Below are positions 9,293 through 40,000 of a stretch of 41,561 nucleotides of DNA, piece after piece (position 1 is the first letter of the stretch; each line of letters starts with the position of its first letter). This DNA is from Gryganskiella cystojenkinii (Eukaryota > Mortierellomycota > Mortierellomycetes > Mortierellales > Mortierellaceae). The DNA is taken from positions 1 to 41,561 of the forward strand of contig JAAAIG010000277.1 in NCBI GenBank assembly GCA_015852425.1, read 5' to 3'. Made by a program: the position numbers and the translations under genes. The notes beneath the pieces were generated by a model. That model ran no database searches, had not been told where the DNA came from, and worked only from the letters and a program-made list of their open reading frames with translations.

Positions 9293-12200
9293 ATGTCTGC
9301 CAAAGCCGTTCGCGAATACGATGGAAAGCTCCTCTTGGCCCATTGGCTCCACAGAGTTGATGTCCCAACCACAGAGACATCGTCCTCAAAATTCATCCAG
9401 CCCACAACCCGTTTGGCCCACGTCTCGATCGATACCGCGTTGTTGAAGGACCCCGTCCAGTTTGAGCAGTCTGTCCGTTCGACTTTGGATCAGTTGGAGG
9501 TTCAGCACCCTTGGTTGTTGACGACCAAGTTGGTCGCCAAGCCCGATCAGTTGATCAAGCGTCGTGGAAAATCAGGTCTCCTTTTGTTGAACGCAGACTG
9601 GACCGAGGCTCGTGCCTGGATCGAGAAGCATGCCGCCAAGGATGTTCTTGTAAGTTTTGAATGGTTTTCAATTTTTTGTTTGATATCGATCCCCCTTTTT
9701 TATGTGCTCTGGGTAGAAGTTTTCTTAAACATTTTTCAAATGTTCAAAGTAAAAACTTTCTTTTCGGAGAGAAAATCGAAAAAAATGGGTTGGGATCGGG
9801 TAAAATTTTTGATGGGTCGTTGCTATTCCGTACGGTTTGTGCGACCCATCTATTTTTCTCTCTGTCTGGATTAACAACGCGAGAACAAACAGCCAAGAAG
9901 AGAGGAATCGGATGACAATTTTTTCTTTTGAGAGTACAGTGTGCAGCGTACTGTCTCTTTACGACTCATGTTGCTTTTCATTTTTACTCTTTTACCTTTA
10001 TGTGGAAAAAAGTGAGATGAAAAAAGGCACGAGATGAAAAATCGAGTGAGCAAGGGAGTTAGGCCCGTGGACAGTAGAAAAAAAGGGCACAGGAGGAGAG
10101 CAAAAGAGTGGGACCATTGTTCTCCATGGCATGATTTTTTTTTCATCTAATTTGCTTTAAGGTTAATTTTCGCCCTGACTGCTCCGTTTTGTTCCTTTGG
10201 AGAAACGTTACTTTTTTTTACTTTTACATTTACTTTTTCAAGGCTTAGAAGGTACCATGGAACATTTTTTCTAACATTTTTTCTTTAATTCTCTTGTCTC
10301 GACTTGATGAAAACAAATAGGTTGACTCTGTCGCCGGTGTCCTCAAAACTTTCCTCGTCGAGCCTTTCATCCCCCATCCTTCCAACACCGAATACTACAT
10401 TTGCATCAACTCGGACCGTGACGGAGACAACATCCTCTTCACACATGAGGGTGGTATCGAGGTCGGCGATGTCGATGCCAAGGCCTTGAAGCTCCAAGTC
10501 AAAGTCCAGGATGCCTTCCCTACTCACGAGTCCATTCGCTCCTCGCTTCTCGTTCACGTCCCCGAGGCCAAGCACGATGTTCTCGTTGACTTCATCACCC
10601 GTCTCTATGCCGTCTACATTGACTTGCACTTCACTTACCTCGAGATTAACCCCTTGGTTGTCTTGGACCCTACTGAGGACGAGCCCGCTCGTGTTTACTA
10701 CCTTGATCTCGCTGCCAAGTTGGATCAGACTGCCGAGTTTGAGGCTGGTCCCAAGTGGGCCATCGCCCGTGCCCCCCAGAACATTGGTATCGCTGGTGTC
10801 GTCGCCGCCTCGACCGGCGCTGATGCCGGTCCCGGCATGGATTTCCCTGCTCCTTTCGGTCGCGAATTGACCAAGGAGGAAGCTTATGTTCAGGAGTTGG
10901 ATTCCAAGACCGGTGCGTCCTTGAAGTTGACTATCTTGAACAAGGATGGTCGTATCTGGACTATGGTCGCTGGTGGTGGTGCCTCGGTTGTTTACTCCGA
11001 TGCCATCGCTGCACTCGGACAGGCCGATGAGCTCGCCAACTATGGCGAGTACTCGGGTGCGCCCACCGAGACCCAGACCTATGAGTATGCCAAGACTATC
11101 TTGGATCTCATGACCCGCAACCCTGTCCCCCACCCCGAGGGTAAGGTCTTGATCATTGGAGGTGGTATCGCCAACTTTACCAACGTCGCTTCGACCTTCA
11201 AGGGTATCGTTCGTGCCTTGACCGAGTTCAAGCAACCTTTGATTGCGCACAAGGTTCGCATCTTTGTCCGTCGTGGTGGTCCCAACTACCAAGAGGGTCT
11301 CCGTTCCATGCGTCAGTTGGGAGAGTCTCTCGGAGTCGAGATCCAGGTCTTTGGACCCGAGACCCATATTACCGAGATTGTTCCCTTGGCCTTGACCGGC
11401 AAGCCTTCGGATGATTTGGTCGCCGCTACTGCTGCTGCCAGTGGAAACGCCTCCTCGGGTAACTTGTTGCAGGATCAATTATTGGGCACCAACTCAAGCA
11501 TCAACACTCCCGTCCCAACTGCGCCTGCCTCCCGTGCTGGTACTCCTCCTGCGACCGAGCGCATGACTTACTTCAACGAGGCAGTTGATGCCAACAAGAA
11601 CAGTGGTCATGATGCCAACGTTCCCTTCACGGCCCAGACTCGCTCTTTCATCTACGGAATGCAGCCCCGTGCTGTCCAGGGCATGCTTGATTTTGATTTC
11701 ATCTGCAAGCGTGAGGTTCCTTCCGTTGCCGCCATGATCTACCCCTTCGGTGGTGCTCACGTCCAAAAGTTTTACTGGGGCACCAAGGAAACACTCTTGC
11801 CCGTTTTTACCACTTTGGAGGAGGCTTGCACCAAGTTCCCCGAGGTTGACACTGTTGTCAACTTTGCCTCGTGCCGTTCCGTTTACCAGTCGACCGTTGA
11901 CTTGTTGAAGTACTCGGAACAGATCAAGACCATTGCCATCATTGCCGAGGGTGTCCCCGAGCGTCGTGCCCGTCAGATCCTTTGGGAGGCCAAGGCCAAG
12001 GACGTTTTGATCATCGGACCTGCTACTGTCGGAGGTATCAAGCCCGGTTGCTTCAAGATTGGCAACACTGGTGGTATGATGGATAACATTGTTTCGTCCA
12101 AGTTGTACCGTGCTGGATCCGTCGCTTATGTCTCCAAGTCTGGAGGCATGTCCAACGAGTTGAACAACATCATCTCGCGCACGACCGATGGTGTCTATGA

Positions 12201-13497
12201 AGGTGTTGCCATTGGTGGTGACCGTTACCCCGGTTCGACCTTTATCGATCACTTGCTCCGTTATGAGAACGACCCCAACTGCAAGATGCTCGTCCTTTTG
12301 GGTGAGGTCGGAGGCGTTGAAGAGTATAAGGTTTGCGAGGCGATCAAGAACGGAACCATTCGCAAGCCCGTCATTGCCTGGTGCATCGGTACCTGCGCCA
12401 AGATGTTTGCCACCGAGGTTCAGTTTGGTCACGCCGGTGCTTTGGCTCAATCGGACTTGGAGACTGCTGATGCCAAGAACAAGGCTCTCCGTGCCGCTGG
12501 TGTCGTTGTTCCCGAGACCTTTGAGAAGTTGCCTTTGGTCTTGAGCCAGACCTTCCAGTCTTTGGTCAAGAAGGGTGTCATCCAGCTCAAGCCTGAGCCC
12601 GAGACCCCCAAGATCCCTATCGATTACTCTTGGGCCCAGGAGTTGGGTTTGGTTCGTAAGCCTGCCTCGTTCGTCTCGACCATTTGCGATGACCGTGGTC
12701 AGGAGCTTTTGTACGCCGGTATGCGCATCTCGGATGTCTTCAAGGAGGATATCGGTATCGGCGGTGTCCTTTCCCTCCTTTGGTTCAAGCGCCGTCTTCC
12801 CGACTATGCCTGCAAGTTTATTGAGATGGTTCTCATGCTGACTGCTGATCACGGTCCCGCCGTCTCGGGTGCGCATAACACCATTGTCACCGCCCGTGCT
12901 GGCAAGGATCTTGTCTCTTCCCTCTGCGCGGGTCTCTTGACCATCGGTGATCGTTTCGGAGGTGCTCTCGACGGTGCCGCAGAACAGTTCTCGTCCGCCT
13001 ACGACAAGTCTCTGACCCCCCGTGAGTTCGTTTCGGTCATGCGTAAGCAAAACAAGTTGATCCTCGGTATCGGTCACAAGATCAAGTCCCGTACCAACCC
13101 AGATTTGCGTGTCGAAATCATCAAGGAGTACGCCAAGAAGCACTTCCCCTCGACTCCCGTCTTGGATTACGCCCTGCAGGTCGAGAACATCACGACATCC
13201 AAGAAGGACAACTTGATTCTGAACGTCGATGGTGCGATCGGTATCCTGTTTGTGGATCTGTTGAGAAACTCTGGCGCTTTCACGCGCGAGGAGTCTGAGG
13301 AATACATCAAGATTGGTACCTTGAACGGATTGTTTGTCCTTGGACGTTCCATTGGTTTCATTGGTCATTACTTGGATCAGAAGAGGCTCAAGCAGGGTCT
13401 CTACAGACATCCTTGGGATGATATCTCGTATCTTACCCCCGGTAACGAGCTCGGTCGCACGGTCGCTTCCTTGGACTCGATCAACAAGAAGGCTTAA
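9293..13497 (+). CDS. ACL1: ATP-citrate lyase, single-chain form
   Basis: Exons 9293-9649 and 10321-13497 give 1177 residues. The cytosolic enzyme converts citrate, CoA and ATP into acetyl-CoA and oxaloacetate, feeding fatty-acid and sterol synthesis. Order along the chain: ATP-grasp/CoA-ligase part (exon 1 to ~residue 480, with VEPFIPH and [15 protein letters not shown]); a Ser/Pro/Thr linker around 500-525; the CoA-binding and succinyl-CoA-synthetase-like part with the phospho-histidine loop FGHAGA (His near residue 823, equivalent to His760 of the human enzyme); then the citrate-synthase-like part ([33 protein letters not shown]). The length matches the animal-type fusion, whereas filamentous ascomycetes use two genes. 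Codon choice is strongly biased to C-ending codons, suggesting very high expression. The only intron, 671 nt, is unusually long. AATAAA motifs at 13568-13577 suit 3'-end formation. Confidence 0.96.
9650..10320 (+). other. Long 671-nt first intron of ATP-citrate lyase
   Basis: The donor is GTAAGT after codon 119 and the acceptor is AAATAG before GTT GAC TCT; the frame is phase 0. Most introns in this window are 50-150 nt, so this one is an outlier. It is rich in A- and T-runs. I find no open exon, snoRNA box pair or other RNA gene in it. Confidence 0.85.
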
Positions 13498-13714: not shown

Positions 13715-13844
13715 GTCGACTTTTGTAGAGACNNNNNNNNNNNNNNNNNNNNNNNNNNNNNNNNNNNNNNNNNNNNNNNNNNNNNNNNNNNNNNNNNNNN
13801 NNNNNNNNNNNNNNNNNNNNNNNNNNNNNNNNNNNAAAGTCGAC
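13715..13844. repeat. Inverted repeat GTCGACTTT / AAAGTCGAC around the gap (copy A)
   Basis: The left arm is 13715-13723 and the right arm 13836-13844; the arms are exact reverse complements and the N-gap lies between them. The same pair, with a 33-bp spacer, is found before the paralogous gene (15102-15152), and the bases around the left arm match too (CTTTTGTAG). The true spacer here is unknown because of the gap. Confidence 0.7.
13733..13835. other. Assembly gap (103 N)
   Basis: All bases are N. The gap lies inside the promoter of His-rich gene A, between two arms of an inverted repeat. Its real size is unknown. Any open frame crossing it on the minus strand is meaningless. Confidence 1.
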
Positions 13845-13932
13845 CAGTTGGACGGACCGAGAGATTGGTAGTTTGCTTTTCCTCTTTGTTACACACCCTA
13901 CTATCTTTTATTTTATTTTATTTTTTGAGTTG

Positions 13933-14016: not shown

Positions 14017-14730
14017 ATGGAGGATCATCACAGCCACGACCACACGAGTCACGATTACTCGAGTCCTGCCACCTCGAGCCACGATCATTCAACTCATGTT
14101 GACAGTGGCCAGTCCTCTTCATCGTTGCACGATTCGTCGTACTCTTATACGATCCTTAATATGGCGGGTTCTTCCAGCATGGGTCACAATAGCCACCTAG
14201 TGGCTCTTCCCGGTTATGAAGAGCAACAGGGGCATAGCCATCACCATCATCATAAGCACAACCAGGACGGAGGTCATCATCACCCTCATCACCCTCACCA
14301 CCCTCACCACCCTCAGCCTCATAATCCAAACAACGACTCTAACACCGCGCCAACGATCGTCCCAGCCCCTATAATCATCTACCCAAACCAAGGTTATGGC
14401 TCGATTCAACCCAGAGTCCTTAGCCAAGAGCCATGGTGTCCACACGAATGCAAAGGTAAGATAAGGAGAGAGAAAATCTGTGCAACAGATAAATACAATT
14501 ACTTTAATATTCGTTTTCAACAAGAACAAGCAACTCACGATAATAAGCAACAGCGACGACTAACAACGGAGAAATCTCACTGTTTTATAATTTTTTCTCT
14601 TCCAGAGTGCCGAAGGGAACGCTTACGTAGGCAAAATGACTCGAACTGTGGCACACCATGTCTGTTTCTGATATTGCTTATCATTTGGATCATCTGTTTT
14701 TTGAATGTGCTCACTGGCGGGCGCCTCTGA
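14017..14730 (+). CDS. Histidine-rich, probably tail-anchored membrane protein (tandem copy A)
   Basis: Exons 14017-14455 and 14606-14730 give 187 residues; the intron splits a Glu codon (phase 1). I do not recognise the family. Residues 1-50 are rich in His, Ser and Asp (DHHSHDHTSHDYSS). Residues ~73-105 are almost all His with Pro, ending in repeated HHP triplets. Then come an Asn/Pro linker, GYGSIQPRVLSQEPWCPHECK, the basic ECRRERLRR, and a hydrophobic stretch CLFLILLIIWIICFLNVL with only five residues after it. There is no N-terminal signal peptide, so a C-terminal anchor with the His-rich part in the cytosol is the simplest topology. Dense His plus a CPHEC-x-x-C cluster suggests Zn, Ni or Cu binding, but this is inference. 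Its tandem partner at 15310 shares exon structure and promoter. Confidence 0.8.
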   Translation: MEDHHSHDHTSHDYSSPATSSHDHSTHVDSGQSSSSLHDSSYSYTILNMAGSSSMGHNSHLVALPGYEEQQGHSHHHHHKHNQDGGHHHPHHPHHPHHPQPHNPNNDSNTAPTIVPAPIIIYPNQGYGSIQPRVLSQEPWCPHECKGKIRREKICATDKYNYFNIRFQQEQATHDNKQQRRLTTEKSHCFIIFSLPECRRERLRRQNDSNCGTPCLFLILLIIWIICFLNVLTGGRL

Positions 14731-15101
14731 GATCTTGGTAATAAAAGGAGGGAGTTAACCCAGGCGGGTGGAACACTATAACTACTTGAAAAATGGGGAC
14801 ACTCCACTTTTCTGATGGTAGTGAACGTTTCGAACAAAAAAAAACATGATGTCAAAGGGAACGAACGAAAAATCTCGGGAATAAAAGTCGAAACACGCAT
14901 TAATAAAAACTCGTTTCTCAAAAGAGACCATATTTGACTGAATATCGTTTAGAAGGAATGGAATGATGAAGAGATGGATAAGAACGAGACGCCCTTGCTT
15001 TCCTTTCCTAGTAAGGGGAAGAAGCGATTCTTTTTTGTCGAGAGGTTCTGGTCTCGTACATGGTATGCCAGATTTTCTTGACGACGCAAAATATAAATTT
15101 T

Positions 15102-15152
15102 GTCGACTTTTGTAGCAACAAACCGCTTGCCCTTTTCGGCCCCAAAGTCGAC
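15102..15152. repeat. Inverted repeat GTCGACTTT / AAAGTCGAC (copy B)
   Basis: Arms at 15102-15110 and 15144-15152 are exact reverse complements separated by 33 bp. Each arm contains GTCGAC, itself a palindrome, so each could bind a dimeric factor. The same pair flanks the gap before copy A. The right arm ends 86 bp before the TATA-like box. Confidence 0.7.
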
Positions 15153-15237
15153 TCGTTGAATGGTTTGCGGGAACCACAGTCGCGGTCCCCCTTCCTGTCT
15201 CTTGTCTTGTTATCCTCATCCTGTTTTTTATATCGCA

Positions 15238-15250
15238 TATAAATACAAGG
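15238..15250 (+). promoter_or_regulatory. TATA-like box of His-rich gene B
   Basis: TATAAATACAAGG, 72 bp before the ATG. It differs from the copy A box at one position. Confidence 0.6.
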
Positions 15251-15309
15251 AATTTGTTCCTTTTAACGCCCACTCCTCACCCTACTGTGCTAAAAACACT
15301 GTATTACCG

Positions 15310-15963
15310 ATGAATGGCCATCATAGCCATGGGCACCACCCGAGTCATGACCAAGGTGGGCACTTGTCATCTTCGCTTCATGATTCGTTGCACTCTCACA
15401 TGACTCTCGATATGACTGGATCTTCGAATGTAGCAGCACCACCGAAATACAAGGACCAAGGAAATCATGGTCACCATCATCCTCACCATCACAAACACGA
15501 GTACGGCCATGACCATCCTCAACCGCATACTCAGACTCGTCACCAGTATGACGACTCGGCGGCTACCATGCCGACCATGGTTCCGGTCACCCGTATGAAC
15601 ATTCACCCATGCCTAGGTTATGGATCAATTCAATGCAGAGTCTCTAACCAAGAGCCATGGTGCCCTCACGAGTGCAAAGGTAAGCAATGAAATGAACTCT
15701 CCCCACAGTCCTTAAAAGCACACGTGTCACATCTGTCGTGCAGTAGTAGCCTTGCACAATTTAAGAGTCAATGTTGCATAACACCACGAAATCTTAAACC
15801 CATAACATTACTTCTCTTTTAACCTTCTTCTTCATTAGCATGCCGAAAGAAACGATATTATAAAGAGCATGACATGCATTGGTTGCAGTGGGTCTTCTTT
15901 CTGGCATTCTTTGTCCTGTGGTTCGTCTTAGAGGTGATATTGATCACCAAACGGCCCTTCTGA
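15310..15963 (+). CDS. Histidine-rich, probably tail-anchored membrane protein (tandem copy B)
   Basis: Exons 15310-15679 and 15839-15963 give 164 residues. The intron is again in phase 1, here completing an Ala codon, and exon 2 is 125 nt as in copy A. The order matches copy A: a His/Ser start (NGHHSHGHHPSHDQGGHLSS), the shared SSSLHDS and L-x-M-x-GSS words, a His cluster (HGHHHPHHHKHEYGHDH), then GYGSIQCRVSNQEPWCPHECK, a basic ACRKKRYYKEHD and a C-terminal hydrophobic helix WLQWVFFLAFFVLWFVLEVILI followed by TKRPF. The anchor sequences differ while the juxtamembrane motif is kept, so selection seems to act on the motif and on having an anchor. An in-frame upstream ATG at 15160 would cross the TATA-like box, so the ATG at 15310 is preferred. 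Function unknown; metal buffering or sensing at a membrane is a guess. Confidence 0.8.
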
Positions 15964-16528
15964 AGTTTCAAGTTAGTGCATTTATAACTCGGGCTGGTAA
16001 AAACTGTTAGACATGAAAATAAGAAACGACACAAATAACCCGCCTTTCTCCCTCTCGTTCTCCTGACGTCCACCCCCTCCTATTTCAAAGTAGTAATGCA
16101 GGGTTTTTTACGGATAGATGTAAAGATCCATCTATAGGGAAGTCTTACTTTGTTCTTTTTATTATAAATATCGCTATGTAGCAAACTTTGTTCAGTGAAG
16201 ACAACATGCGGATTAAATTCTGAACGTAGTGGGGTTATGAAGACAGAGGGGAGATGAGTGTCCACAGTAGAAAAAGTCAATTTTTCCAAACGAAAATCAA
16301 CAAGTTGGAGAAGGGTATATTATTAAGACCAGAATTATGAGGAGGTGGGGAGAAGAGTTGACCGGATTCTTAGACAGAATGGACGATAGATAGTGGGACG
16401 CAAGAAGAGAGGAGCAGCTACGTGAGTGGGGATGGGGACATGCACACATAGATAAAGTCTAAAGGGGAGGGAAGCGAAAGAAAAAAACAAAGTATACACA
16501 TGTAAACTTTTTCAAAATTATATCTCGT
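15964..16528. other. Convergent intergenic region
   Basis: Tail-to-tail space between His-rich copy B and the apyrase gene. It is AT-rich, and I see no exon, RNA gene or third copy of the His-rich gene. Confidence 0.5.
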
Positions 16529-19500
16529 CTAAGGAGACATGACAGTGCCAGAACTTCCGCGTCGAACGTTCTCACTACTGCCTCTCGAGACCAACTGTTG
16601 ATCCTGCTCTGTGATGTTATGACGTCCGAGGACCAAAGAGCTTGTACTCGTGGACACTTGTTGCAAATTAAATAGATGATGTTGCTGTTGTGTTTGAAAC
16701 TGAGGGGCAGAAGACGGCATAGGGCTGACACTTCGAGCACCCGATGCACGGACCGAGATCGGCATCAATCCACCACTTGACCGTCGCCCACGACCTCCCG
16801 TGGAAGAAGCTCCGCTGAGATATCCAGCCTCACTTGCGGATTCCTGTCCATCGTCGAGACTGGTCATGGCCCCAATGCCAGATTCGAAATTGATTCCAGA
16901 CATGATCCCGGTCGCTCGTTGTTTGTTTCGTCCAGTGTGGTTCGGGTTATGATCTGAAAAGGGGATCGCGCTCGCGGATCGAAAAGGCGTATGTGAGTAT
17001 TGTTGTTGGTTGTACTGGACTTGTTGTTGATACTGTTGGAACGCAGCTTTGTTGGTACTGCTACCGGTGTGACTGTTTCCAAAACCCGTGGTCGAGAGAG
17101 AGGAATGATGACGGTCCATGTAACCTTCACCTTCATCATCCCCATCACCACCATCAGCACTCCATTCGTCTCGTTCATCCGCAGAGGTGACGAATCCGGA
17201 CGCGATTCCTGAGGCAGAAGCACCACTATTATTATAATTGCTGCTGCCAAAGTATCCAGCGCCATATCCGCTCAGGTTCACAGACGATGTCGGTGCAGAC
17301 GAAGAACCGTCCTGATGGACGAGTTGTTGTTGCTTGTACCTGGCCATAGGCGTTAAGAGTGGGCTTCCTCCTGCGGACCCGTTGCCGCTCGAGATTGCGC
17401 CCACAGCGTTAAAACTCCGGGAACTTGTTAGCATTGATGGCATTGGTGTTGTTGTTGCATCCGCCGCTTGATCATCCTCAGGAATCCAGCCTTGTTTCCA
17501 TCCACTGCTCAGGTTACTACTGCTTCCAGATCGGGCTGTCAATTCAACAGAGGACTGAAGATGGGGCTGCTTTTGCAAGAGTGCAGTGTTGACGACACAC
17601 CCCTCCACATTCGCGTTCCGACCGTCCTTGCCGTTGCCGTTGCCATTATTGTTGTTGTTTGTGGATGCGAACAGGGACTGAGAGTCACCTGAGAACCGCT
17701 TCTTGTTGATCCTGAAAAACCGCGGCGTGGTCTTGGGTGGACGTGAACCCGAGGAAGAGTTCGACATGCTTGAGTGCGATCGATGGTATCCACCCTCGAA
17801 GGACCCTGGAGGTAAGCCGTTGTTACCGACACCGGACCCCATTTCCGGAATAGCGCTCAATCCTAAAGAACCCAGACTACCCGCAGGTGTGCCTCCGTGA
17901 TGTGAAACTCCGACAATGTTACCGTTTCCAATGCCGAGACCGGGCCCACCATGGGTAGGCGCAGTTGAAGAACTGCCATCGAATCCAGCGATCGTAATAG
18001 ATTCCATCATCTCTTCGGTTCCTCTGGCGCCTGTGTCAAAACTCGTGGGCTCTGGCCAGATCCGACTCGTCAAGGACCACCAGACAGATCGGGTATGATG
18101 GACAACTGATAAATAAAAGACCTTGAAGCTGGCTCGGGGACTGAAACTTCTCCCTCCATACGCTCCTGCACCGACGGCTCCAGACTCTAAAGCGCTATAA
18201 TCCGTGTTGGAAGGCCCACTTGTCCGACGGAACCGACCAAAGAGCGGGAGACCACCGTTGCTTCCACCTCCACCGGGGGACAAGGACGATCCATTAGAGC
18301 CCAACCAGCGCCGGATCGTAGGCCAAGACTTGGAGGACCTTGATCGATAGACCCAAAAGACTGCGAGACCAAACAAGACGATGGCAAGGAGCATGAAATG
18401 GTTATAGCTGTCCAGCATCCGTTCCGGGTATGTGTCCTCATGCGGTGGTCCTTGTTTTGCAGGTGGAAGGACTTGTTCCGTGGGTTTGTGACCTCCATGA
18501 TCGGACGATCCAGTTCCAGCACCGATCCCCGTAGGACCCATAGACCCACTCGAAATTAGCAACATGGCTCCCAGGGTCCATGTGACTTGAATATCCTTGA
18601 TCGCATTGATCGACCGGAACGGCACAGGTCGCCAGTTCTTGCTGTTGATCGACTCGTCTGCCTTTTCGAGGACCTCGTTCGACTGTTCTTTGGATCCTCC
18701 AGCACCGCGTTCACCGAACCTGGGCAGGCCAAAGCCTCCATGAAGGACGTTTGACAACCAAGCGGATTTGAAACACTGCATCTCGAGTCGCTCCTGTAGT
18801 TGTCCCTCATACTCGGGTCGGTCCTTGATATCGTCCCATTCCGAATTACAAAACTCGGCCGATTTCCGTTCAAACTCTGCATAGTCATAAGCACCCCCAA
18901 GTCCGAGAATGTCATGGGAAGAGTACCAGTATTCAGAGACGCCGATGAATGTGTTGATGTTGAAATCGATCGGCGGCGTATGAACGCCGTTAAAGAGACA
19001 AGGGATATCGGAGCACTCCTTGTCCTTGTTCAACAAACCCTCTACTCTCGTAAGACAGCCTGTGAAGGACCCTATGCCACGGAGGTTCACATGCGGTTGC
19101 GTGTGGGTCTCGTTGATGTGAAGGTTCCGGGGCAAACAGGGGTCGTCGATAACCTTTTCGGATTCCACATCTTCTTGATGGGCTGGTAGGAGATATTCCT
19201 TGACGTATCGTCGCCGGGCTTGATTCGACCCATAGCCAAGAAAGGTCGTGACAAAGACGTTGTACTTCATCGTTTCTCCATCCAGGGTCTTCAAGCTAAC
19301 TGCTGTCAGATCATTCGCATGTTCTTCCGAGGCCTTGGGCGAGGGTTCGAACGCGATCTGCGTACTGGCGCCTCCCATGTCCAAAAAACCGAGGGTATGG
19401 CGATGGGACTGGGGTGCTGTCGGATCATCCAGATCGCCATTGTCGTAGTTGGGAGGAATAGACTCTGAATCAGAGGCATCATGTTGTTCGGATCCGGGCG

Positions 19501-20182
19501 CAGGCTTGATCATCTTGATACCTCCCTTATCAAATCCGCCCATGAGATAGTTGATCGCAACCCAACCATAGATGCCCTCTTCCTCGCCAGAGATGTTCCG
19601 GATATGGTCTTTACATGCACCAATGTCGAAGTTGTAGTTTTCCCTGATGTAATGACACGAGTTGGTTAGGATCTTTTCCCGGACGTCGTCCTTGACGAGT
19701 CTTAGACCCGCAGTCGCGAGCAGGTAAATAGGAGTGCTAGCGATCTGGGATTCAGGGATGATTTGGATGGCGTGGTCCAGTAGCGGTTCCAGATGTTCAC
19801 CTACATCCTCCGGTCTGTCCTTAAAGTCGGCTATGCCTGTACGTAATTTAATTTCATCATCAAAGGTCCGAATTATGCGTTAGCCGCAAGAATATTTCTA
19901 TTGCGTTTAAAAATAAGCCGCATAGGAGGGTTTCAAGGCTAATAAAAAAAGTGTACCTGGCTCGGTCTTCTTGGTCCAGTCTGAGTGATTTGACGCATCG
20001 GATTCGACGCCGGGTTCGATGGTTGGTAAGGTTCCTCTGCGGGTGTGAAGGGGTGTGGTCTGTTCGAGATGAGCACGGTCGATCCAGGAGTAGATGTGGA
20101 TCCTAGAGCCGGATGAGCCAGCGTCGATGACGATGCCAAAGTGCCTGTTCCTGAGCCATGCCTCCGAATGGGTCGAGGTCAT
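16529..20182 (-). CDS. Apyrase / nucleoside diphosphatase (GDA1-CD39 family) with long tail
   Basis: Exons 20182-19957 and 19836-16529 give 1177 residues. Apyrases hydrolyse nucleoside tri- and diphosphates; in the yeast Golgi, Ynd1 and Gda1 clear the GDP or UDP left by glycosyltransferases. The apyrase regions are clear: VIDAGSSGSRIHIYSW (residues ~18-33), LLATAGLR, GEEEGIYGWVAINYLMG and GFLDMGGASTQIAFEP. The catalytic part runs to about residue 500. One strong membrane helix (FMLLAIVLFGLAVFWVYRS, near residue 550) follows. There is no N-terminal signal anchor, which fits the Ynd1 layout. Then come about 600 residues of Ser/Gly/Asn-rich, low-complexity tail, far longer than in yeast Ynd1 (about 630 residues in all). 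A perfect acceptor (CCCACAG) abuts the ATG, so a 5'UTR intron or an extra upstream exon is possible. Confidence 0.9.
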
Positions 20183-31256: not shown

Positions 31257-31851
31257 CGTTAGATGAACTGTCGGTACCTAATTTCTATGCCGAGTTGAAA
31301 AAACTGTGTAATGCTCTGTCCTGGCTAGGAATCCGATTGTCGATGATAGGAATACGTCGAAAACCGATGTAACGTGAATGAGAGAGAGGGAGGATGCAGA
31401 AGGGAAGCGAAAGGAATTGAAGAGAAGAGACAAGACTCAAAAAGGGAAAAAAATAAAGAGATTTTCTCCGATTAAAATAAAAATTGACGAATAAGAACTG
31501 CAGTAAACTACCAATAGTTTTATTCAAAATATTACCGAGAGTCGTCGAAAATTGGTGGCGTCCTTCCGGGCTATCTTTTTTGACCCAACAAGAGAGTGCA
31601 GTACCCCTGACTTGCCCTAGAAAACAAAGAGCAGTCCACAGTTTTCTCTTGACTTTGTTTCAATTCACATTGCTGGTTTGGAGGCGCGGCTATAACGAAC
31701 GATAGAGCCGCCAATCTCGCGTGGGCACAGCACTTTGAAAGGTTGAGACATTGCTCTTTCTTCCGAAGGCGAAGCATTTCTTTTAGATCCGCTGCGCGTT
31801 GTCGCTACGTATAAATACCTCCAATCACCCGGTTTTTTTTTGTTTCCCTCA
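31257..31851. promoter_or_regulatory. Divergent promoter region of Mmm1 and U2 snRNA
   Basis: Mmm1 reads left and U2 reads right from this 595-bp space. The right end carries TATAAATA 35-42 bp before the U2 start and a T-run after it. The rest shows no exon or second RNA gene. Confidence 0.5.
31810..31817 (+). promoter_or_regulatory. TATA box of the U2 snRNA gene
   Basis: TATAAATA, with its first base 42 bp before the inferred U2 5' end (31852). The position suits a core promoter of a short RNA gene. The exact start rests on alignment by eye to known U2 RNAs. Confidence 0.6.
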
Positions 31852-32052
31852 ACCGCTCGAAGCCTTCCTGGCTAAGATCAAGTGTAGTATCTGTTCTTAT
31901 TATTCCTGACAGAATAATACGACCCTCTCCTCTGGGTCGCTTATCTCTCTTTGATTTTTTAATTACCTGACGAACCCAGCTCTGGCTACGCTAATCTGTT
32001 TGGTCGTCACTGGTATCCTTGGCATCGCACTATCGCCAAGTTTTGATGCCGA
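31852..32052 (+). ncRNA. U2: U2 spliceosomal snRNA
   Basis: Positions 31870-31900 match the near-invariant U2 core, including the branch-point-pairing segment GTGTAGTATCTGTTC. The expected folds follow in order. Stem I is AGCC/GGCT around TTCCT. Stem IIa is TATTATTC (31898-31905) with GAATAATA (31912-31919). Stem IIb is CGACCC (31920-31925) with GGGTCG (31934-31939). The Sm site is ATTTTTTA (31954-31961). Stem III is GACGA (31969-31973) with TCGTC (32004-32008). Stem IV is GGTATC-CTTGGC with GCCAAG-TTTT-GATGCC around loop ATCGCACTATC (32024-32034), a U2B''-type loop. The ~200-nt length is normal for U2, which recognises the intron branch point. The 5' end is placed by analogy with human U2. 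The 3' end is set just after stem IV, about 100 bp before the convergent release-factor stop codon. Confidence 0.96.
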
Positions 32053-32153
32053 ACTTATTTCATCTCTCATAATCCAAAAAGAAAAAAAAATATTAAAAAA
32101 ACAAAACCCCTCCCACACCTCCAAGTGGCACCTTATGAGACGAATATTATAGT

Positions 32154-37016: not shown

Positions 37017-40000
37017 CTATCCGTTCATGTGGTTTGAGGACATACCATCGATTCCAGGGAGAACAATTGGGGTCACATGCCCTCGGCCGGTTCCGCTGTC
37101 ACCTATTCCGATCCCGTTCCCGATACCATTACCGTTCTTGCTCTTGTATCCGATAGCAGCCCCATCCGCATCCAACATGCTGCTGTGGCTGCCCGTGTGA
37201 CCTTGACCTTCAGCGATCGGTGCCGCTGCTGCAAGAGCACCGATGCCACTCAGCTGACTTGGATCCAACGGAGTGTGCATCATGGATCCCATGCCAAAGT
37301 CGACACGTTGCCTCTTGACCGCATTATTATTGTAATCCATCGATTGTTGTTGCTTTGACATCGCGTTCGGTAGGGAAGACAGAGACGATGCTGGCGTGAC
37401 TAGATCATGAGGGGTCGAAGTCGCACTCGAGGTCGCGTACCACATGCTCGCAGCGGCAGCGTCAGCCACTGCTGTTGTTCCTGGCAGCTTGGTCATGTTT
37501 GTGTTCAAGTATGGGTTTACTGTTTTGTGTGTTTTGTGTTCAAAAGTGCAGAGCAAAATCATTTTAGTTAATATCTTCAAAGTTTGAGACTGATGCTATC
37601 GAAAAGGTATCTTGTCAAGGATACTGAATTATACCTGCGTCTTTCGAGCCATCGGCAAGGACGGAAGCCTGTGCCGTCGCGCTGGTCGCAATGTTACTGA
37701 CAGGGACGACACGGCCGTGGTCTGTATGAGACATGCCCGAGAGTCCAAGACCAACGCCCTCTACAGACGGAGGCACCATCGCACTGGAGACCGAGGAGGA
37801 ACTAGGAACCACGCCATAGTTGGACCCCGCCGAGGAGATAGAACTCGTGCTTTGATGATAACTATGACCACTGTGGCCGTGACCTTGACTGCCTCCAAGA
37901 CTGACGTTCATGCCTGTGGTGTCGTGCCCATAGCCGGCTGAAACTTGACCGCCATAAGCCTGCTGCTGTCCTGTTGCGTATTGACTCTGACCGGCATAAG
38001 CGGCCGTAGACATGATTGAAGCTGCAGTCGCTGGCGTGATCGTACTTGAGCTCATGGGCGAAGAGATTGCAGGATACCCCTGTTGCGAGGTTTGGCTCTG
38101 TGTCGACAAGTTTCGCTGGTGAAATCCTGGGTATTGTTGTGGCTGTTGCTGCTGATTCATTTGCTGTTGCTGAATCTGCTGATGAGCCAGCTGCTGTTGC
38201 TGCGCCAGGTACTGTTGTTGGACCATCTGTTGTTGCTGAGCCAACCGCTGTTGCTGTGCCAGCTGTTGTTGTTGTTGGATCGACTGTGGGTCCAGATTGG
38301 AGTGTGCAGAGGGTGACGGAGTCGACGCCAAGGGTTGAGGAAGACCTCTGTTGTTGTAAGGATACTGTTGGTGAGACGAGCCTGGGTACGATTGCTGAGG
38401 ATATTGTCCATAAGGTTGAGAAGCAGCATACCCCCCATGTGATCCATAACCCTGCTGTTGTTGGAACTGGGCAGTATTATAGGTTTGTTGCGGGTACCCA
38501 GGATGTTGTTGTGATTGCATCGAGTATGGCTGTCCATATCCCTGTTGATTGTACGAGTTGGCATTGTATCCCTGAGATCTCGCTCCTCCTACTCCTGCCG
38601 CTCCTCCTGATTGCATTTGATAAGCGGTGTACTGCTGTTGTTGATAAGGGTCGCTCCGAGGAGGTACAGTGTACATTGACTGCTGTTGCTGCTGCTGCTG
38701 TTGTTGTGGATGAGCTGAGTAAGTCCCTCCAGGGTACATGCCCTGTTGTTGCATTCCTCGCGATGACGATGACGTGCTGGAAGGGTACTGCTGCGCGGGA
38801 TTGTACGCGTTGTAGGCTGTTGGTGGGTACCCACTTTGGCTCATTAGAGGCGCTACATTTTGTTGAACAGGAACAGCTGCGGTAGGAGTTGGCGCGGGCG
38901 GTGAGGCGACAGCATCCACGCCAGGTGTTTCAGATAATTTTTTGGGTCGCCCTCGCTTAAGTGCTGGCATAGAGGGTGCATTTGTCACTGTGCTCGCGTG
39001 TTCCGCAGCAACATGCCTCATCAATTCCTTGTCATTCGAGAACACCCTATAAAGTATATAAAAGTAGTGAGTAGGGGAGGTTGTTGGAGATCACAAAAAT
39101 AGGGCTTTCTCGGTGACGTTTCCATCAATTCTAGCACGGACACACTTTCAGCAACTTACGTAGCACACTGCTTATTCGTAGTAAGGTTCGTGTAGTTGCA
39201 TCTGTACCGTTGATGAGTCGGGGAACCTAGCATCTGGTATGTAGCCGGGGTAGTGTGATGTGGTTGCTGGACTTCCCTAGATTGTTGTTGCTGATTCTGG
39301 TTGACAAACCGCGCCGCTGTCGCTTTAGGCTGAGCATCATTACTGGCGCTGGTACTGTCCTGCTGCATCTGGGCGGATTTGCGTTTGTTCGACTTTGTTG
39401 TTTTTGGTGCTGTGGCCTTGGCAGCAGCAGATTTGGGAGCAGGTTTCGGTGTTGGTGCGGGTGTCACACTTGGTGATGATCCATAAGATGAAGCATCGTC
39501 GCTGCTCTCCTGCGGCGTGCTTGCCCTTGAAGGAGGCTCACTTGTGTCGACCCTACCTGCCTTCTCCATCATTGATGCACTTGGAAGTTTCTTGAGCACC
39601 AAGGGTTCCTTGTAAGGGATGAGCTCCAAGTCTTCGGCCTTGTGCCCAGGCGGGAAAACCTTGATCCAGGTTTTCAGCTTTGTCAAAAGCTTGTCCGCTT
39701 CGTTGTAACGTTGCTCGCAGATATAGATCTTCTGGCCCTCCCTCCATTTCGCTGGTCGTCCTCGAATGTAGTCCCTTGGCTGGAGAATGAAGCATCTCTC
39801 GATGACCTCGCTTATCGCATGAGGGTGGACTCCAGAAGCTTTGAGGACTTCGTCCGCATAGAATCGGCTCGAATACGGACGAACAATCTGCTCAGGACGA
39901 AGAAACCAGACGGCATCCATAGATTTTTGACCCCTAGTAAAATAAGAATAGGTTAGTTTCAGCCAACACTTGTTTCTATGCATGAAATATTGCGAAGATA

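What the first reader, a model, noticed from the sequence alone, without database searches (positions are those of the whole stretch)
14017..15963. Tandem pair of histidine-rich, probably tail-anchored proteins of unknown family
Two neighbouring genes encode proteins with dense His clusters, no signal peptide and one hydrophobic helix at the very C-terminus. Intron position and phase are identical and exon 2 is 125 nt in both, so they are duplicates. The His-rich parts and the anchors have diverged while the segment GYGSIQ-x-RV...QEPWCPHECK is kept. I know no named family with this layout. A membrane-tethered metal buffer or sensor is a reasonable guess but not shown.
Basis: partly seen in the sequence, partly recalled or inferred. 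Interest (0 to 1): 0.75.

Follow-up and report, generated by a model that had tools for sequence, protein, structure and literature searches.

The report
Paired His-rich, probably membrane-anchored orphan proteins
Two neighbouring duplicated genes in a fungus-like genome encode histidine-rich proteins that probably sit on a membrane by their tail end; they match no named family that was searched, one relative turned up, and they look like metal-binding tethers that may recruit a ubiquitin ligase, though this is untested.

Summary
Gene A (14017-14455 + 14606-14730, 187 aa) and gene B (15310-15679 + 15839-15963, 164 aa) are diverged tandem duplicates (BLASTP E 3e-24): same intron site and phase, 125-nt second exons, 15-16% His, one C-terminal hydrophobic stretch. 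No Pfam, NCBIfam or PDB match is significant. No third copy was found in the 35 Mb assembly. One relative was found among 5.8 billion proteins: P0001, 138 aa, which ends two residues past the shared splice site. New here: all three carry a PY motif ([LP]PxY) at one aligned position, the kind that recruits Nedd4/Rsp5 ligases, and three loci of the genome have three WW domains beside HECT. Both genes share a 14-base promoter word with no other exact copy in the assembly. Best explanation: a cytosol-facing, tail-anchored metal-binding tether, possibly a PY adaptor, that works like a minimal LITAF/Bsd2-type protein without belonging to LITAF (second Cys knuckle absent). Metal binding, topology and function are inferred, not shown. 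Moderate interest.

The parts
14017..14455 (+). gene A exon 1: His-rich N-terminal part and conserved GYGSIQ...QEPWCPHECK block
   Evidence: P0001 aligns to 14017-14460, E 4.2e-32, 57% identity
14456..14605 (+). gene A intron, 150 nt, phase 1, in frame and without a stop
14606..14730 (+). gene A exon 2, 125 nt: third Cys, basic stretch, C-terminal hydrophobic helix
   Evidence: helix at residues 17-35 of the 40-aa exon-2 peptide
14206..14217 (+). gene A LPGY, PY-type motif
14425..14454 (+). gene A QEPWCPHECK block
15310..15679 (+). gene B exon 1: His-rich N-terminal part and conserved block
   Evidence: P0001 aligns to 15310-15684, E 1.4e-17, 52% identity
15680..15838 (+). gene B intron, 159 nt, phase 1, early in-frame stop
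15839..15963 (+). gene B exon 2, 125 nt: third Cys, basic stretch, C-terminal hydrophobic stretch
15439..15450 (+). gene B PPKY, PY motif
15649..15678 (+). gene B QEPWCPHECK block
13715..13728 (+). promoter word GTCGACTTTTGTAG upstream of gene A
   Evidence: one of 2 exact places in the assembly
13836..13850 (+). second arm AAAGTCGACCAGTTG upstream of gene A
   Evidence: 6 places in the assembly for AAAGTCGACNNGTTG
15102..15115 (+). promoter word GTCGACTTTTGTAG upstream of gene B
15144..15158 (+). second arm AAAGTCGACTCGTTG upstream of gene B

Best explanation
Two tandem duplicates of an apparently lineage-restricted gene make small membrane proteins whose N-terminal 120-145 residues face the cytosol. 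The disordered His-rich part loosely binds divalent metal (Zn, Ni, Cu or Co); the membrane-proximal block C-P-H-E-C-x2-C gives a tighter site; the C-terminal helix of about 19 residues holds the protein in an endomembrane. The [LP]PxY motif between the His clusters would let a Nedd4/Rsp5-type ubiquitin ligase dock, so that metal loading could be coupled to ubiquitination of a membrane partner or of the protein itself. Shown by sequence: duplication, gene structure, His content, hydrophobic C-terminus, motif at an aligned position, shared promoter word. Inferred: topology, disorder, metal binding, ligase recruitment, coupling.
For: His 15-16% in A, B and P0001. CPHEC and the P and Y of PxY are invariant in 3 of 3 sequences, CPHEC-x2-C in 2 of 2 with a known second exon. 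Residues 126-152 of A change slowly against B (dN 0.14, dS 0.62) while residues 153-187 change letters (dN 0.92, dS 0.69) yet stay hydrophobic, with 4 of 24 identities in the last 24 residues, as expected for a lipid anchor. AlphaFold2 on A's exon-2 peptide alone gives one helix, mean pLDDT 93 over residues 21-30. An [LP]PxY arises by chance in 0.057, 0.030 and 0.023 of 5000 composition shuffles of the N-terminal parts of A, B and P0001. Rsp5 WW domains recognise PPXY or LPXY, and the membrane proteins Bsd2, Tre1/2, Ear1 and Ssh4 are such adaptors (PMC2810449, passages seen; LPxY and Rsp5 also PMC1557994, passages seen). Three WW domains beside HECT matches on C624, C533 and C235.
Against: No metal-binding, localisation or interaction data. 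Short motifs are weak evidence: PY motifs are in about 4% and LPxY in about 7% of yeast proteins (PMC1557994), and A has LPxY, not PPxY. His tracts can be low-complexity drift. The three sequences are homologous, so shared motifs are not independent. Only exon 1 of the relative is known. P0001 folded alone gave no secondary structure (mean pLDDT 55), compatible with disorder but also with lack of an alignment; the exon-2 model too is from a single sequence. B's tail was not folded.
Confidence: 0.4

Rival explanations
1. Plain membrane-tethered metal buffer: the His-rich part and Cys block bind metal at a membrane surface; the PY motif is chance and no ligase is involved.
For: His density and CPHEC-x2-C are the strongest features; a PY-type motif alone arises in 2-6% of shuffles per sequence.
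Against: P and Y of PxY are invariant at one aligned position in 3 of 3 while much of the surrounding His-rich sequence has changed.
Confidence: 0.3
2. Diverged or truncated LITAF-family protein: monotopic, both ends cytosolic, with the second Cys knuckle lost.
For: LITAF has an N-terminal PPXY and a Cys knuckle before a 22-residue hydrophobic stretch (PMC5095921, passages); weak Pfam hit of A's last 64 residues to zf-LITAF-like, E 0.049.
Against: Below the curated cut-off (14.2 against 23.8 bits); absent in the full-length scans of A and B and in the scan of B's last 64 residues; no second knuckle follows in the frame of either gene, and none that could be joined was seen to 15310 after A and to 16700 after B; nothing over the LITAF cut-off in the assembly, best 20.5 bits (introns can hide a domain there).
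Confidence: 0.12
3. His-rich tracts are neutral low-complexity expansion, and the real function lies in the conserved GYGSIQ...QEPWCPHECK block as a protein-protein interaction or sorting signal (YGSI in A and B, YGAI in P0001, fit a YxxPhi pattern).
For: The block changes least between A and B; [GS]YG[SA]I in three of three; the YxxPhi motif is recalled, not from a call.
Against: His content is similar, 15-16%, in all three and His positions near the N-terminus align.
Confidence: 0.18

Closest known systems
LITAF / CDIP1 (zf-LITAF-like, PF10601)
   Same: N-terminal PY motif; Cys knuckle before a hydrophobic stretch of about 20 residues near the C-terminus (LITAF features: PMC5095921 passages)
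   Different: No second Cys knuckle; His-rich N-terminus; profile match not significant
Bsd2 / Tre1 / Ear1 / Ssh4 membrane adaptors of Rsp5
   Same: Membrane protein with PY motif; Bsd2 and Tre1/2 act on the metal transporter Smf1 (PMC2810449, passages)
   Different: No Pfam match of any kind; one hydrophobic segment at the very C-terminus, where Bsd2 has several (recalled)
Tail-anchored proteins inserted by the GET pathway
   Same: No signal peptide-like stretch, single C-terminal hydrophobic stretch, four residues after its best 19-residue window
   Different: Topology and insertion route untested
DUF2116 (PF09889) and TIGR04104 putative zinc-finger families
   Same: Cys knuckle, basic stretch, then hydrophobic stretch (layout recalled); weak hits of B, E 0.031 each: B's last 64 residues to DUF2116, whole B to TIGR04104
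   Different: Below cut-offs; not matched by A

Membership tests
LITAF (PF10601) | Significant match to the domain profile | tested here: not met
   E 0.049, 14.2 bits against cut-off 23.8, A's last 64 residues only
LITAF (PF10601) | Two Cys knuckles flanking the hydrophobic stretch | tested here: not met
   only the first is present; both proteins end four residues after the best 19-residue hydrophobic window
LITAF (PF10601) | Monotopic, both ends cytosolic | not testable with these tools
   needs a topology experiment
Rsp5/Nedd4 membrane adaptor | PY motif in the cytosolic part | tested here: inconclusive
   [LP]PxY in 3 of 3, sidedness unknown
Rsp5/Nedd4 membrane adaptor | Ligase with WW domains and HECT present in the genome | tested here: met
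   C624, C533, C235, by neighbouring matches; gene models not built
Rsp5/Nedd4 membrane adaptor | Binds the ligase and promotes ubiquitination of a cargo | not testable with these tools
   needs binding and turnover assays
Tail-anchored protein | Single hydrophobic helix within the last 30-50 residues, no signal peptide | tested here: met
   by hydropathy for both; helix predicted for A only
Tail-anchored protein | C-terminus crosses the membrane | not testable with these tools
   needs a topology experiment
His-rich metal-binding protein | Dense His clusters | tested here: met
His-rich metal-binding protein | Binds metal | not testable with these tools
   needs purified protein

The most novel reading that the evidence does not exclude
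A lineage-specific family of metal-gated, membrane-anchored ubiquitin-ligase adaptors: metal binding to the His clusters that flank the PY motif switches recruitment of a Nedd4-type ligase, and both copies are co-regulated by a private promoter element of two GTCGAC arms.
Probability: 0.13. Interest if true: 0.65.

Novelty: new variant of a known kind. Interest (0 to 1): 0.42.

Why it matters
If true, it adds a case of small PY-motif membrane proteins that link metal status to protein turnover, outside the families where this is described, and gives a tandem pair with a shared promoter word, unique as an exact word in its assembly, for testing metal response.

Tried and rejected
Named-family searches: Pfam, NCBIfam and PDB gave no significant match. 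Weak hits not listed elsewhere: whole B to Zip (PF02535) E 2.7 and to NF040487 (CigR family) E 0.15. PDB: 15 distinct sequences at E 0.025 or worse with the full profile, 7 at E 0.67 or worse with the core; most of the 15 lie in the His-rich part, several at chain starts, and I read them as purification-tag or composition matches. PHROGs and PADLOC were not searched. A second Cys knuckle was looked for in three + strand frames of 14600-15310 and 15835-16700: the three hits (15875, 16596, 16680) are out of frame, broken by a stop, or inside the overlapping downstream gene. The five sub-threshold LITAF places in the assembly showed no LITAF domain that I could recognise in a Cys-motif scan of three frames. 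No relative in viral contigs (507 pattern places, none confirmed). A retained-intron form of gene A is open, but the same intron has an early stop in B, and P0001 ends two residues past the site, so I do not take it as the conserved form. A wider regulon of the promoter element: the exact paired form with a spacer of 20-50 occurs only at gene B (gene A's arms lie further apart across an N run); within one mismatch the 14-mer has 18 places besides the 2 exact, the reversed control 6, not followed up. Papers: the searches (listings only: 20 of 1,263, 5 of 5, 3 of 3 and 8 of 196 papers) showed no title describing such a pair; this is not proof of absence.

Limits: two-sequence dN/dS with few sites; N-terminal dS saturated. 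Promoter shuffles kept single-base composition only: longest shared word 15, best shuffle 14, 0 of 1000 reached 15. The protein database may hold few fungal proteomes.

Full report
Observation. Both genes are where the finding puts them. A: 14017-14455 and 14606-14730; B: 15310-15679 and 15839-15963; introns of 150 and 159 nt in the same place and phase; second exons of 125 nt each. The proteins are 187 and 164 aa, 15.5% and 15.9% His, and similar at E 3e-24. Each has one strongly hydrophobic stretch, at the very end (Kyte-Doolittle 2.89 and 2.72 against at most 0.54 and 0.55 outside the last 35 residues). AlphaFold2 on the exon-2 peptide of A alone gives a single helix at residues 17-35 of 40.

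Age and constraint. The introns share no alignment beyond 7-base words, so the copies are old. Nei-Gojobori counts give dN 0.14 and dS 0.62 for residues 126-152 of A, and dN 0.92 and dS 0.69 for residues 153-187; numbers are small (27 and 35 codons) and the N-terminal dS is saturated. I read the block as under purifying selection, and the tail as keeping hydrophobicity rather than letters (4 of 24 identical at the end).

Distribution. Within the assembly (34,989,676 bases, 1050 contigs) searches with A's core and B's core (E up to 10, three candidates each past the first look), P0001 (two candidates) and a GYGSIQ pattern found only these two genes; a back-translated WCPHECK pattern found these two exactly and six other places with two mismatches, the reversed control one. 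Among 5.8 billion proteins, A's core alone gave none of two candidates, the A+B profile one of 451, P0001, E 3.7e-28, and the three-sequence profile only P0001 itself among 1341. P0001 comes from a 1283-base ENA contig without a name; it is 54% identical to A's exon 1 and 48% to B's in the alignment and ends CPHECEGK. Both window introns begin GTAAG, which read on in frame gives the same GK, so P0001 fits a gene call running into the same intron (inference). The database is of public genomes and metagenomes and may hold few fungi, so rarity there does not show rarity in fungi. That the host is a fungus, perhaps of the Mortierella kind, is my inference from gene content (one-piece ATP-citrate lyase, GATA factor, I/LWEQ protein, U2 RNA) and recall; no call names it.

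Motifs. M-x-x-HH, the P and Y of PxY, and CPHEC are invariant in three of three. PxY is LPGY in A, PPKY in B and PPRY in P0001, which has a further PPLY. Such motifs bind Rsp5 WW domains (PMC2810449 and PMC1557994, passages seen). The assembly has 23 WW matches at E up to 0.001, 22 marked over the cut-off, and contigs C624, C533 and C235 each have three WW matches next to HECT matches on the same strand (the 14 control genomes gave none for either family), the layout of Nedd4/Rsp5 ligases (recalled). A PY motif, a Cys block and a C-terminal hydrophobic segment recall LITAF, but the second knuckle is missing and the profile match is not significant (LITAF features from PMC5095921 passages).

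Promoters. GTCGACTTTTGTAG has two exact places in the assembly, both strands searched, starting 302 and 208 bases upstream of the two start codons (the first distance counts 103 N). In B it is followed by AAAGTCGAC, giving two inverted arms 51 bases end to end, the only such exact pair in the assembly for spacers of 20-50. In A the second arm follows the run of N. AAAGTCGACNNGTTG occurs six times in the assembly, three on this contig, two of them these promoters. I read this as a retained regulatory element of the duplicated unit; it may also be only a remnant of the duplication, though the introns and most of the promoters have lost similarity. Near matches of the 14-mer elsewhere (18 with one mismatch, control 6) were not followed up.

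Verdict. A real, old tandem pair that matches no named family searched, with a plausible but untested role as a membrane tether that binds metal and may recruit a Nedd4-type ligase. No step of the mechanism beyond sequence anatomy is shown.

Noticed in passing
window 31851-32058 (+): U2 spliceosomal RNA gene, 82.1 bits.
   Followed up: no
window 13733-13835: Run of 103 N between the two GTCGAC arms of gene A's promoter; an assembly gap or withheld stretch, so the true spacing is unknown.
   Followed up: no
window 14456-14605: Gene A's intron is 150 nt, in frame and stop-free, so an intron-retaining mRNA would encode a 237-aa protein with the same tail.
   Followed up: partly
window 37296-37310 (+): A third AAAGTCGACNNGTTG on this contig, away from the pair.
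   Followed up: no
window 10321-13497 (+) and 16529-19879 (-): Neighbours: one-piece ATP-citrate lyase upstream and a GDA1/CD39 nucleotidase downstream; no evident functional tie.
   Followed up: partly
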